Source of the DNA: Ignisphaera sp.
Lineage (GTDB): Archaea; Thermoproteota; Thermoprotei_A; Sulfolobales; Ignisphaeraceae
Reading direction: 5' to 3'
Assembly (NCBI GenBank): GCA_028275825.1
Contig: JAPWTX010000010.1
Location: 1 to 47,214, forward strand
DNA length: 47,214 nucleotides
Below are positions 1 through 22,558 of this stretch, piece after piece. The notes beneath the pieces are model-generated. The model saw only the letters and a program-made list of their open reading frames with translations, was not told the origin of the DNA and searched no databases. Each line of letters opens with the position of its first letter. Within the stretch, counting starts at the first letter, position 1. The position numbers and the translations under genes were made by a program.

Positions 1-71
1 GCTATATAAGTAATTACAACACAATACCTACTTAATTCACTACATATTTAATAGACACCAACAATGCCCTT

Positions 72-110
72 CGTAGCTGTTTCTAGTTTCATATAGGTTT
101 ATAAGGTTTG
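72..110 (+). repeat. 39-bp promoter-like repeat, copy 1
   Basis: This block matches 11626-11664 with only three mismatches in 39 bp. Its centre is GGTTTATAAGG, a good archaeal TATA box, and a GC-rich block (111-345) begins immediately after it, so it looks like the promoter of a structured RNA. A 14-nt stretch next to the second copy (11659-11672) recurs in exact inverted orientation at 347-360, so the unit may instead be a terminal repeat of a small element. Confidence 0.7.
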
Positions 111-345
111 TTGATCCCTCCACTATTTGGGAGATGCCTCGAGATGCGGGTGTATCGCGAAGACCCAAGAGAGGTGGGTTTGAGGAGGAGCCAGGATGCA
201 GGGGTTACCCTACAGCAATGACCCGGAGAAAAGTGGAGGGGGAGCTGTGGGTAGGGGTCACCCCGAGCGGGTGGAGCCCAGTGATATGAACCCCGATGAA
301 AGGGGTTCTGAGGGCTGTGAAGCCAAGGGGAGAGGGCTTGATATC
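111..345 (+). ncRNA. Candidate structured RNA A (kink-turn-like family)
   Basis: This GC-rich island in AT-rich surroundings lies directly downstream of a TATA box and has no convincing reading frame. A perfect 7-bp hairpin (288-294 with 302-308, loop GATGAAA) is flanked by GTGATATGA on the 5' side and CTGA (308-311) on the 3' side. It is closed by AGCCC (275-279) with GGGCT (312-316). That resembles a box C/D or H/ACA kink-turn bound by L7Ae. An upstream arm pairs around 208-217 with 243-251. TGCAGGGG (197-204) and GCAATGACC (215-223) recur in the same order at 11805-11812 and 11825-11833. It is not recognisable as SRP RNA. Strand and ends are inferred. Confidence 0.4.
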
Positions 346-346
346 A

Positions 347-373
347 AACAATGTCAAACCCTATGAAACCCGA
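347..373 (-). repeat. Inverted copy of the promoter-like repeat
   Basis: AACAATGTCAAACC at 347-360 is the exact reverse complement of 11659-11672, and the similarity continues imperfectly through the TATA part to about 373. Region A (72-373) is therefore bounded by related sequences in inverted orientation. Confidence 0.55.
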
Positions 374-809
374 ACCCCATCCTACTTATCTCTTAATTAA
401 CCTAACACTATCGACTTTCATAACCGAAAATCTCGCCATTTATGGCAGGAAAGAGGTTAGGTATAATAACCAGCTCTGACAATAAGCTAATGCTTAAAAT
501 GTTTTATTATATTACTGCTTTATTCCATCACATATCATACAGAATATCCATGGATTTCATATGCGAACTTCTTTCTACATTTAAAGGTCTTTGCTTCTTT
601 AAGATGGGAAGGTTGGAGCTCATGTTCTCAGGAGTTCAATCACTAAGCCATATCTTCAGTCATTACCTCTGTTCATCTGATTCAAGTTGTTATGGATCTG
701 CAAAGCATCATAGTATGATGCTTTAATGTTCATCGCTAGGAAGAGCTATATCAAGAAAGCTTACAGATATCCCCATGTAGTAAAGGGCAGGGCTTTTGGT
801 TTTAATGGC
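374..809. other. Gene-free stretch between candidate RNA A and rnpB
   Basis: No supported gene is seen. Open frames here (for example 442-726 on the plus strand) have no recognisable domain, no ribosome site and atypical composition. The segment is simply downstream of rnpB. Confidence 0.5.
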
Positions 810-1132
810 GGCCCCCTGATTCGCAATAACCCACCTTCTGTAGTCAACTACATTTGGCTAAGCGGCTTTACCCCTTCACGCAGCCTTCATCAGGGGCTTG
901 CCTTACTCCCCAGAGGTCGGCCGTTTCACTGCATCTACAAGCCTCGTCTGCAGATTGGCCACTCCTTAGTTGCCTAAGGAGTCTTACTACTTCATCCTCA
1001 TCAGCTTGTAGCCATATCGTTTCTGTGCCGGGACCTAGGGTATTACCCTAGCCCCTCGCGGGGCTCTGGGGCTGCGCGGAGGGTGGTGTTTCCTCAGAGG
1101 CATCTCCGTAGTAGCCTGCGAATCAGGGGGCC
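810..1132 (-). ncRNA. rnpB: RNase P RNA
   Basis: This is the catalytic RNA of RNase P, which removes 5' leaders from pre-tRNAs. The ends form a perfect 15-bp P1 helix (1118-1132 with 810-824). Reading the minus strand, the conserved blocks come in the right order: GAGGAAAC (1095-1088, CR-I), ACAGAAAC (1026-1019), a GTGAAACGG-type element near 920-930, and ACAGAAGGTGGGTTAT (841-826, CR-V). CR-I and CR-V can form helix P4. The length of 323 nt is normal for a crenarchaeal RNA. A TATA-like AGCTTTAAAC at 1151-1160 lies about 24 bp before the 5' end, so it probably has its own promoter behind sec61-beta. The base expected to be the bulged U of P4 reads A here. Identity is secure; ends may be off by a few nt. 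Confidence 0.92.
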
Positions 1133-6414: not shown

Positions 6415-6605
6415 CTCATAATAATCAAATACAATGTACATAATAGCGGTCTGTATAATCTTAAATAGCTGTGAATCTGTAAACATCTTTTAGATTTGAT
6501 ACCCTCTCTACACATATTTAGCTGTAGATTATGAGTCTTGGAGCTTGAAGCACGCTCAAAGTGGATGAGGGGCTTTGGGGGTTTTGTTGAGCTCTGATAG
6601 CCTGG
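6415..6605. other. Gene-free lead into candidate RNA D
   Basis: AT-rich DNA with no supported gene. The frames on both strands at 6556-6807 are shadows over the GC-richer RNA-like block. Confidence 0.45.
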
Positions 6606-6655
6606 GCAGTGATGCTATGAAAACCCGAACAGAGCCCGGGAACCCTGAGGCAAGA
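6606..6655 (+). ncRNA. Candidate structured RNA D (kink-turn-like family core)
   Basis: The segment reads CAGTGATGC, TATGA, an AACCCG...CCGGGAA arm and CCTGAGG. This is the same order as CAGTGATATGA - hairpin - CTGAGG at 280-313 and TATGAAGCCCC...GGGGCTGAG at 22349-22374. A further short stem (GGGGAAACCCC, about 6685-6696) follows. The RNA ends and any promoter are not clear. Confidence 0.3.
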
Positions 6656-6989
6656 CATTTAAAACTAACTACAGATGATTGCTTTGGGGAAACCCCTTTA
6701 CTATCGGTAGTCAACAGTATTTCTGACTCCCTTCTAACTCTAAGTGATGAGGGTTCTTGAGGGTAGTTCATTGACTCCTTACATCTATTCGTGTTTACAT
6801 CTGTCATCTGCAGAGTAGTTCGGGGTGGTAAAGGGTGCTTTGAGATGCATTCTATTAGCGTTTGTTAATTTATTTAGATCTTGAGGTATTGTAGAGGTGG
6901 TATTGAGGTTTGCTTTGATTCATGAAATTAATATTCTCTTCTGTTTATATGTTTCCTGACTATAAGATATTTTTAGAGTGGTGCTTGCC
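6656..6989. other. Gene-free region ahead of the DUF357 fusion gene
   Basis: No supported gene. CTATAAGATATTTTT just before 6975 is a TATA-like element for the gene starting at 6990. Confidence 0.45.
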
Positions 6990-11547: not shown

Positions 11548-11625
11548 GCTACCGTTTACTCAAGAACAATTATATAGAATGTTTCAAGACATTTTAAGAC
11601 TACCCTCAAGTTTCTTACAGCCTTT

Positions 11626-11664
11626 CGCAGCTGTTTCCAGTTTCATAAAGGTTTATAAGGTTTG
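11626..11664 (+). repeat. 39-bp promoter-like repeat, copy 2
   Basis: It matches 72-110 with three mismatches and contains GGTTTATAAGG (TATA). A GC-rich structured block follows directly. The conserved part here extends to GACATTGTT (to 11672), whose inverted copy is at 347-360. Confidence 0.7.
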
Positions 11665-11960
11665 ACATTGTTAGGCATCTTGATGAGGTTCCCTGTGAGG
11701 GGTGAAGAGCCTGCAAGGGCTCTCCCCAAGGGCAGCAGCCCAAGATGTGGGGTCCCTGGGGTGGCCCTGAACGCCCCCAAGGCATATGCAGGCCCAAGGG
11801 GCGGTGCAGGGGAATAGAGATGAGGCAATGACCATAAAGCAATATGAATCTGTATAAGAGCTGAACCCCTCCCCCAAGTCACAGCAGCTCATCACTAGCT
11901 GCCTAGAGGCTCAAAGCCCCATGGCTCTCCAAAAACTAGGACAATCATGTACATGAGCTT
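11665..11960 (+). ncRNA. Candidate structured RNA B
   Basis: This GC-rich block behind the TATA box at 11652-11660 has no credible protein frame. CATCTTG (about 11676-11682) can pair with CAAGATG (about 11741-11747). Between them lies GGGG-TGA-AGAGCC-TGCAAG-GGCTCT-CCCC (11699-11727), a stem with a 3-nt UGA bulge as in a kink-turn, followed by the small hairpin GGGC-AGCA-GCCC. TGCAGGGG (11805-11812) and GCAATGACC (11825-11833) also occur in that order in candidate RNA A. CAATATGAA...CTGA at 11840-11864 may be a degenerate version of its core. Ends and function are unknown. Confidence 0.4.
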
Positions 11961-12097
11961 CGAAAAGCTCAAAACATCCTCACAACACTAAAAGAACTCA
12001 AAAACCTAAACAACTTCATTAACAGAAACATCATTTCCCCGTTCACATTATTTGCGAATAGCTGTAATCAGTTTTAAACATGTTTACAGGGGTTGCA
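11961..12097. other. Gene-free AT-rich stretch
   Basis: No gene or strong structure is seen between candidate RNA B and repeat E copy 2. Confidence 0.45.
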
Positions 12098-12200
12098 CCT
12101 CTATGTGGATCTACTTCACCCATACATCATGGGCACCCCTCGAGCCCAATGCCATGAAACCCCCTATCCAAGTTCCTATACCACTGCAGATAATCCAAAG
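12098..12200. repeat. Dispersed intergenic repeat E, copy 2
   Basis: It shares GGGG-CTG/TTG-CCTC-ATGTGG, CTTCACCC, CATGGGC, CGAGCCCAA-GCCA and CCATC-type blocks with 21941-22075, and part of them with 1444-1541. It has no coding capacity. The remaining 12201-12366 is AT-rich without a visible gene. Confidence 0.55.
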
Positions 12201-21753: not shown

Positions 21754-21891
21754 CACACACCATTTACCTCACTTCCATATACACAATTTTCACAATTAAG
21801 CATAATAGCTTGTGCCCCGCCTAACCGATCTCTCAACATCTCCATACCCATCCGCGGGTCTTTTAGAGAGACGTGAGGCAGCGGGGCGTTT

Positions 21892-21946
21892 CCCCTCTAA
21901 CGGTACTTGATGGTATTTGTAAATATTTGTATTTCCGTTAGAGGGG
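21892..21946. repeat. Perfect 12-bp inverted repeat with AT-rich loop
   Basis: CCCCTCTAACGG (21892-21903) is exactly repeated in inverted orientation at 21935-21946, around a 31-nt AT-rich loop containing direct TATTTGTA-like repeats. It abuts repeat E copy 3. It could be a replication-type or element-end hairpin or part of an RNA. Confidence 0.7.
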
Positions 21947-22075
21947 CTGGGCCTCGATGTGGGTTCACTAGCTTCACCCACACCCCATGGGCCCCTGTCG
22001 AGCCCAACGCCACGGGGCTCCCATCTGAATCTCTATATTGATTCCCTATGTCACCGCGGTGCGGATCATCCGAGA
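21941..22075. repeat. Dispersed intergenic repeat E, copy 3
   Basis: This is the longest and most GC-rich copy. It contains the stem GTGGGT...ACCCAC (about 21960-21981) and blocks shared with 12098-12200 and 1444-1541, ending in GGATCATCC. It is followed by CGAGAAACTATAG, which recurs at 22470 and, inverted, at 22544. Confidence 0.55.
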
Positions 22076-22299
22076 AACTATAGTAGTTATAGAGCTATTT
22101 AAACATTACTCTCTATTGGCAAATATTTACAGATATTCACAGATATTTAAACTTACCATCAATTCTGTAACAGCCTTAAATAGTAAGTTGTATGCTGTTT
22201 AATAAACTTTTCCTTGGGGCTGTTTCGGTCTTCATAATTATTTGTAACACTTATTTTCATTGATGTTTAAGACTTAGAGTTGAGTTTATAAGTTGCTGT
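22076..22299. other. Gene-free AT-rich stretch
   Basis: It contains short tandem-like CAGATATT repeats near 22125-22145 and a weak match (GCTGTTTC-GTCTTCATAA, near 22217-22235) to the promoter-like repeat. No gene is seen. Confidence 0.4.
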
Positions 22300-22311
22300 T
22301 GTTTATAAGCT

Positions 22312-22420
22312 TGGTCAGTGACCCCGAGTTTCCGAGATCCGCAGGGCTATGAAGCCCCTGGTGACAGGGGCTGAGCTTCTGTGGTGAGGGGGCTTGGGGA
22401 GACCGTTGAGAAGTAGATGG
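22312..22420 (+). ncRNA. Candidate structured RNA C (kink-turn-like family)
   Basis: It contains a perfect 8-bp hairpin AGCCCCTG-GTGA-CAGGGGCT (22353-22372) with a GNRA-type tetraloop. It is preceded by CTATGA and followed by CTGAGC, the same arrangement as 285-313 in candidate RNA A. Upstream GGTCA...CCCCGAG is also shared with 257-267. TTTATAAGC (about 22299-22307) is a possible TATA element, although it sits too close for the hairpin to be far into the transcript. Function is unknown. Confidence 0.35.
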
Positions 22421-22469
22421 TGGGGAGCCTGAAAAAAGCGAATATGAGAGGCTGTGGACCGCTATCTAC

Positions 22470-22558
22470 CGAGAAACGGTATAGTGTATAACTTCCTCAT
22501 CATAAAGGACAGTGTTCTTAGTTGCAAAACCTTTTTAAATATGCTATAGTGTTTCTCG
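22470..22558. repeat. Inverted CGAGAAAC..TATAG repeats
   Basis: CGAGAAACGGTATAG (22470-22484) and the inverted CTATAGTGTTTCTCG (22544-22558) face each other, and a third copy in direct orientation starts at 22071. They may mark the ends of an element containing candidate RNA C. Confidence 0.45.

What the first reader, a model, noticed from the sequence alone, without database searches (positions are those of the whole stretch)
280..316. A family of kink-turn-like GC-rich RNAs in several gene-free regions
Seen: GTGATATGA-hairpin-CTGAGG at 280-313 matches TATGAAGCCCC...GGGGCTGAG at 22349-22374 and CAGTGATGC-TATGA...CCTGAGG at 6608-6649. Stems are preserved while their sequences change (GAACCCC/GGGGTTC against AGCCCCTG/CAGGGGCT), which suggests compensatory change. 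The UGA...CUGA arrangement around a stem is that of L7Ae kink-turns. The set does not match the usual compact C/D sRNA layout.
Basis: partly seen in the sequence, partly recalled or inferred. Interest (0 to 1): 0.7.

Follow-up and report, generated by a model that had tools for sequence, protein, structure and literature searches.

The report
Transposon guide RNAs from divergent TnpB elements
The GC-rich RNAs are not one L7Ae/snoRNA-like family: they are guide-RNA scaffolds left by three separate kinds of TnpB (Cas12-ancestor) transposon, and one kind carries its guide RNA back-to-back with its nuclease gene on a shared promoter, a layout I found no description of.

Summary
The sequences are real, and each belongs to a separate multicopy family (A 66-377, B 22219-22479, C about 6448-6695) in this Ignisphaera-like archaeon and other genera. 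In all three, a covarying structured scaffold stops abruptly at one transposon end and is followed by copy-specific flank, the signature of a TnpB omegaRNA (scaffold plus guide). Family A is the omegaRNA of an IS607 element (serine recombinase TnpA plus TnpB, intact elsewhere in the genome). Family C lies directly 3' of a zinc-finger-less TnpB. The window copies have lost tnpB (MITE-like). The kink-turn reading is good for B, plausible for A (kink-turns are published for IS607 RAGATH-18 reRNAs) and not supported for C. The surprise is family B. Its partner is a 363-aa TnpB/Cas12f-fold protein with a conserved RuvC D-E-D and no zinc finger. Its RNA lies about 50 nt upstream of the ORF on the OPPOSITE strand in 47 of about 58 testable archaeal loci, with one palindromic TTATAA about 25 nt from both starts. 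The own genome has 18 B-RNA loci but one intact B nuclease gene, so most would have to be served in trans. Transcription and activity are untested.

The parts
66..377 (+). Family A element: MITE-like, tnpA/tnpB-less derivative of an IS607 transposon; left end 66-178, omegaRNA scaffold 191-377
   Evidence: Multi-copy ends; precise empty site of a sister copy
191..377 (+).
   Evidence: Alignment A1 of 26 copies and covariation; model R3 216.9 bits
378..398 (+). Predicted guide of the family A copy (starts at 378/379, after the CC core; length inferred)
   Evidence: Sharp loss of conservation after GAACCC in 31 copies; core dinucleotide from the empty site
22219..22479 (+). Family B element: derivative that has lost its TnpB-like ORF; the left end aligns with the segment just beyond the ORF 3' end in intact copies
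   Evidence: intact copies L055/L062/L063 carry a 363-aa ORF at this spot
22316..22479 (+). Family B omegaRNA-like scaffold with canonical kink-turn GGC-UAU-GA-AGCCCCUG/CAGGGGCU-GA-GCU near 22344-22376
   Evidence: Model R1 172.2 bits; 18 of 38 pairs compensatory
22480..22499 (+). Predicted guide of the family B copy (length inferred)
   Evidence: Sharp loss of conservation after GAGAAACGG
22284..22315 (+). Candidate promoter region of the B RNA: two TTTATAA boxes, corresponding to the bidirectional TTATAA spacer of intact copies
   Evidence: Sequence and spacing
6448..6695 (+). Family C element (left limit approximate); omegaRNA scaffold 6564-6695
   Evidence: model R2 130.1 bits
6696..6715 (+). 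Predicted guide of the family C copy (length inferred)
   Evidence: Sharp loss of conservation after GGGGAAACCC
6723..6832 (-). Degraded omegaRNA of a fourth type, the widespread IS605-like form (...CCCTTTAGGGCGGGGAGGAGGTCAG on its own strand)
   Evidence: About 80-nt repeat found in many genomes of the order; repeat boundary and adjoining tnpB 3' ends; hits
11619..11868 (+). Degraded second family A element (left end about 11619-11667, RNA 11740-11868)
   Evidence: R3 22.3 bits, E 7.7e-5; sequence
11880..11923 (-). Family B remnant, kink-turn hairpin only
   Evidence: R1 27.2 bits, E 2.2e-5
12031..12131 (-). Family C remnant
   Evidence: R2 29.7 bits, E 5.1e-5
21886..22025 (-). Family C-related remnant
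   Evidence: R2 32.4 bits, E 1.3e-5

Best explanation
All three RNAs are omegaRNA (reRNA) scaffolds of TnpB-type transposons. Transcription runs outward through the right end into flanking DNA, so each copy gets a guide equal to its own insertion flank; a TnpB-type nuclease with this RNA would cut the matching empty site next to a TAM and so keep the element in place. The window copies lost their nuclease genes and would have to be served in trans. A belongs to an IS607 element and C to a zinc-finger-less TnpB element, with the RNA overlapping the 3' end of tnpB as usual. B belongs to a separate crenarchaeal lineage of 363-aa Cas12f/TnpB-fold proteins in which the RNA is not cut from the nuclease mRNA but lies divergently upstream, probably driven by one bidirectional TATA box. 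Shown by sequence: families, ends, empty sites (A and B), covariation, linkage, strand and predicted protein fold. Inferred: transcription, binding, cleavage and trans service.
For: (1) Copies end abruptly after GAACCC (A), GAGAAACGG (B) and GGGGAAACCC (C) and then differ completely. (2) A and C copies lie immediately 3' of tnpB on the same strand, e.g. C53, C5, C23, C25. A lies in a full IS607 unit with a 200-aa serine recombinase and a 438-aa TnpB. (3) Weak hits of models R3 and R2 elsewhere in the genome fall directly 3' of other tnpB genes (C18, C39, C40, C42, C50; against 25). (4) Empty sites: an A copy against G000:C28 and a B copy in G002 against G001:C85, both crossing the junction. 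(5) B protein: RuvC D209, E273, D346 conserved and aligned with TnpB D-E-D (hhalign E 2e-7); model pLDDT 88.9, best PDB folds Cas12f (E 1.3e-11) and also ISFba1 TnpB. (6) B RNA on the opposite strand directly upstream of the ORF in 47 loci at E<1e-3, including proteins only 38-44% identical. (7) Strand of B RNA: 175 G-U cells against 24 A-C cells. (8) TTATAA centre 25.5 +/- 1.6 nt from the RNA model's 5' end and mostly about 25 nt from the ORF start.
Against: No RNA-seq, binding or cleavage data were available. B RNA strand and guide polarity are inferred, not observed. The B protein has no curated family hit above cut-off. Some genomes hold B RNAs without a detected B protein (G040: 16 RNAs, none), though those assemblies are fragmented.
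Confidence: 0.88

Rival explanations
1. L7Ae-binding kink-turn sRNAs of the host (C/D- or H/ACA-like guide RNAs).
For: Kink-turn motif in B and kink-turn-like loop in A; archaeal host.
Against: Copies are bounded by transposon ends, have empty sites and lie next to tnpB; no Rfam snoRNA match above threshold; C has no kink-turn.
Confidence: 0.04
2. The B structure is on the ORF strand: a 5' leader with an IscB-like 5' guide, or a regulatory leader of the B protein.
For: It lies upstream of the ORF, as the omegaRNA does in IscB loci (own knowledge).
Against: G-U against A-C 175:24 favours the other strand; model hits are on the strand opposite to the ORF in 47 loci; the TATA box lies between ORF and structure, about 25 nt from the ORF start, so the structure would be upstream of the ORF's transcript start; the fold is Cas12f/TnpB, which use 3' guides.
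Confidence: 0.07
3. The conserved structures are DNA hairpins/binding sites for the transposase, not functional RNAs.
For: Copies are mobile elements and the ends must be conserved for TnpA.
Against: 164-189-nt multi-helix structure with compensatory change, preferred G-U over A-C, strand-polar placement relative to ORFs; the serine recombinases of IS607 elements do not need long hairpins (own knowledge).
Confidence: 0.04
4. B RNA and B protein are linked but the protein is a nuclease-independent repressor (TldR-like) or another RuvC-fold factor.
For: Zinc finger lost; a conserved GGGGATTCCCC dyad sits between TATA and ATG, suggesting regulation.
Against: RuvC D-E-D conserved (D209 and E273 invariant, D346 at least 90%), and the known dead relatives have lost it (own knowledge).
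Confidence: 0.12

Closest known systems
IS607 TnpB with RAGATH-18-derived reRNA (ISFba1; PMC11061315)
   Same: Family A: serine recombinase, TnpB, RNA at the tnpB 3' end, guide beyond the scaffold, possible kink-turn.
   Different: No Rfam RAGATH-18 match was listed for family A; archaeal; RNA overlaps the tnpB ORF end; window copy lacks tnpA and tnpB.
IS200/IS605 TnpB-omegaRNA (ISDra2; PMC8612924, PMC10278001)
   Same: Scaffold ends at the right end, guide from the flank; RuvC D-E-D.
   Different: In canonical TnpB the omegaRNA is processed from the tnpB mRNA (PMC10278001). In B it is on the opposite strand upstream of the ORF, and the zinc finger is absent.
Cas12f (type V-F)
   Same: Best structural neighbours of the B protein.
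   Different: Carried by mobile elements with defined ends, each with one RNA and a flank-derived guide, instead of a CRISPR array; 363 aa.
Non-autonomous MITEs of TnpB transposons
   Same: Ends and omegaRNA kept, genes lost.
   Different: B MITEs keep the RNA's own promoter region.

Membership tests
TnpB omegaRNA (families A and C) | Located at the 3' end of tnpB on the same strand | tested here: met
TnpB omegaRNA (families A, B, C) | Scaffold 3' end coincides with the transposon end and a variable guide follows | tested here: met
   empty sites for A and B; no empty site was sought for C
TnpB omegaRNA (families A, B, C) | RNA binds TnpB and guides TAM-dependent cleavage | not testable with these tools
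   No experiment possible
TnpB omegaRNA (family B) | RNA located at the 3' end of the nuclease ORF, same strand | tested here: not met
   RNA is divergent and upstream in 47 loci; only about 40 nt lie between stop codon and left end
TnpB/Cas12 nuclease (B protein) | RuvC fold with D-E-D triad | tested here: met
TnpB nuclease (B protein) | C-terminal zinc-binding CxxC...CxxC motif (Cas12f1-like TNB) | tested here: not met
   No Cys motif in alignment A4; Pfam PF07282 only sub-threshold
IS607 | Serine recombinase TnpA and GG/CC core at both ends (family A) | tested here: met
   L139 TnpA ORF (assigned by eye, no HMM run) and CC core at an empty site
IS607 | Own serine recombinase gene (family B) | tested here: inconclusive
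   Left end resembles A's and ends carry GG, but intact B elements contain only the one ORF
RAGATH-18 RNA | Match to the Rfam model | tested here: not met
   One search lists no RAGATH-18 match up to E 5 for window 100-420
Archaeal C/D box sRNA | Compact C, D', C', D boxes with about 10-nt guides | tested here: not met
   Structures; only sub-threshold Rfam snoRNA matches
Kink-turn | 3-nt bulge plus tandem sheared G-A pairs between two helices | tested here: inconclusive
   Pattern present in most B copies, variant in A, absent in C; by sequence pattern only

The most novel reading that the evidence does not exclude
Family B is an RNA-guided nuclease system in which guide RNA and nuclease are uncoupled: divergent transcription from one TATA box, RNA-only copies spread around the genome, each with its own promoter and guide, all served by one nuclease gene in trans, i.e. 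a scattered, transposition-built guide set that could protect many non-autonomous copies or act on invading DNA.
Probability: 0.4. Interest if true: 0.8.

Novelty: new variant of a known kind. Interest (0 to 1): 0.6.

Why it matters
A TnpB/Cas12f-type nuclease of only 363 aa, from hyperthermophilic archaea, without a zinc finger and with a separately transcribed guide RNA would show how guide and nuclease can become uncoupled, the step also needed on the way from TnpB to CRISPR-Cas12. It is also a compact heat-stable candidate enzyme. More practically, much of the 'gene-free' GC-rich sequence in these genomes turns out to be omegaRNA and its relics.

Tried and rejected
Rfam at gathering and at E<=5 gave no usable family for A, B or C; the group II intron (17 bits) and snoRNA hits are chance level. 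phmmer/hmmsearch of the B protein against PDB sequences found nothing, so fold comparison was needed. The L101 insertion was tried as an empty site through its aminopeptidase gene: homology starts only after the junction, so it shows nothing. The L050 junction (translates like a PaREP1 protein, by eye) was left out because the frame across it is ambiguous. Literature searches returned one paper with TnpB and kink-turn and none that describes a divergent guide (titles and abstracts, few read); the library holds open papers only.

Full report
OBSERVATION. A DNA search of 60 related genomes with each site showed three different multicopy families. A (280 site): 8 copies in the own genome and copies in other genera. 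B (22349 site): 12 copies. C (6608 site): about a dozen, a bounded list. With covariance models the own genome has 14 A, 18 B and 25 C loci at E<=1e-3. The host is probably an Ignisphaera relative: one same-genus genome has a single contig of 1,875,953 bases, the size I remember for I. aggregans (species name from memory), and named B-protein loci include Ignisphaera sp..

ANATOMY. Alignments of 31 A, 27 B and 19 C copies show a conserved scaffold that stops abruptly at the same place in nearly every copy (A GAACCC, B GAGAAACGG, C GGGGAAACCC), followed by completely different sequence. The left ends of A and B are sharp as well. Two empty sites were found by joining flanks: a family A copy (G000:C42) against a related sequence without it (G000:C28), target ATAAG[CC]TTC; and a family B copy (G002:C72) against G001:C85 inside a protein gene. 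So these are mobile elements, and the scaffold ends at the transposon's right end. A published procedure for TnpB places the scaffold/guide boundary exactly at such a sharp drop in conservation (PMC10278001).

FAMILIES A AND C. Searching the own genome with the NCBI TnpB model and comparing places shows that A and C copies sit directly 3' of tnpB genes or fragments on the same strand. The complete A unit (L139) reads: 200-aa serine recombinase with an N-terminal helix-turn-helix (assigned by eye), 438-aa TnpB with two CxxC motifs, and the RNA overlapping the tnpB 3' end, which is an IS607 element. C goes with 414-425-aa TnpBs that lack the cysteines. Weak hits of the A and C models elsewhere in the genome also fall immediately 3' of other tnpB genes, an independent check that these are omegaRNAs. 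In the window all three elements have lost their genes.

FAMILY B. Intact B copies carry a 363-aa ORF on the strand opposite to the RNA, starting about 50 nt from it. Pfam and NCBIfam give only sub-threshold TnpB/Cas12f hits. 45 homologues align with Asp209 and Glu273 invariant and Asp346 at least 90% conserved. A profile comparison with canonical TnpBs aligns these with the RuvC D-E-D (E 2e-7). An AlphaFold2 model (pLDDT 88.9, pTM 0.80) matches Cas12f structures best (8j3r E 1.3e-11; 9i8y TMq 0.64) and also ISFba1 TnpB (8iaz E 1.8e-5). There is no zinc-finger motif. Homologues come from Desulfurococcales, Acidilobaceae, Pyrodictiaceae, Caldivirga, Vulcanisaeta and one Thermococcus MAG.

STRAND AND LINKAGE OF B. 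The B covariance model over 68 loci found by protein similarity alone hits 47 of them at E<1e-3 on the strand opposite to the ORF and directly upstream; about 58 loci are archaeal and hold enough upstream sequence to test (my count). A few of the 47 overlap the training set; most do not, and they reach proteins of 38-44% identity. Apart from one odd locus with hits on both strands (L202, partial ORF), no such hit lies on the ORF strand in that position. 18 of 38 pairs show changes on both sides, and no shuffle reaches this. The spacer of mostly 48-52 nt in close relatives has a palindromic TTATAA whose centre lies 25.5 +/- 1.6 nt from the RNA model's end and mostly about 25 nt from the start codon, the usual archaeal TATA distance (from general knowledge), consistent with one bidirectional promoter. 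No room for another RNA remains at the ORF 3' end (about 40 nt to the element end).

MECHANISM. From established TnpB biology: the scaffold binds TnpB, the adjoining flank is the guide, and the RNP cuts the empty site beside a TAM so that the element is copied back. The left flank ends in GCC (A) or [AT]GG(GG) (B), the natural TAM candidates. In the own genome 18 B RNAs face one full-length B nuclease gene, so most would need service in trans. This step is inference.

KINK-TURN. In B the sequence reads C-helix, three bases, GA, NC-helix, loop, NC-helix, GA, C-helix in most copies while the stems change, a textbook kink-turn pattern. A has RUGAU..CUGA with two extra bases. C has none, and its CUGA is a private change of the window copy.

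NOVELTY. A and C are new members of a known kind. B, a TnpB/Cas12f-like family with a divergent upstream guide RNA, was not found in the open literature searched; subscription papers were not covered, so novelty is probable, not proven.

LIMITS. No transcript or activity data. Guide length, TAM and trans service are inferred. E-values of the home-made models are rough.

Noticed in passing
window 6723-6832 (-): A fourth, degraded omegaRNA of the common IS605-like type (CCCTTTAGGGCGGGGAGGAGGTCAG end), present in many copies across the order.
   Followed up: partly
window 11600-12140: A graveyard of three adjacent omegaRNA relics (A +, B -, C -) in one gene-free stretch.
   Followed up: partly
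B loci such as L148, L153, L161: last 15 nt before the ORF start: Conserved dyad GGGGATTCCCC (variants GGGTATATCCC, GGGGCTATAGCC) between TATA box and start codon of the B nuclease; looks like an operator or self-regulation site; unexplained.
   Followed up: no
genome G040: 16 B-RNA loci but no B protein at E<=1e-3: orphan guides, or a different nuclease uses them.
   Followed up: no
window 816-1126 (-): Archaeal RNase P RNA, full-length match (175 bits).
   Followed up: no
window 1-65: The first 65 bases are identical to G000:C76:63-127, so the contig breaks in repeated sequence.
   Followed up: no
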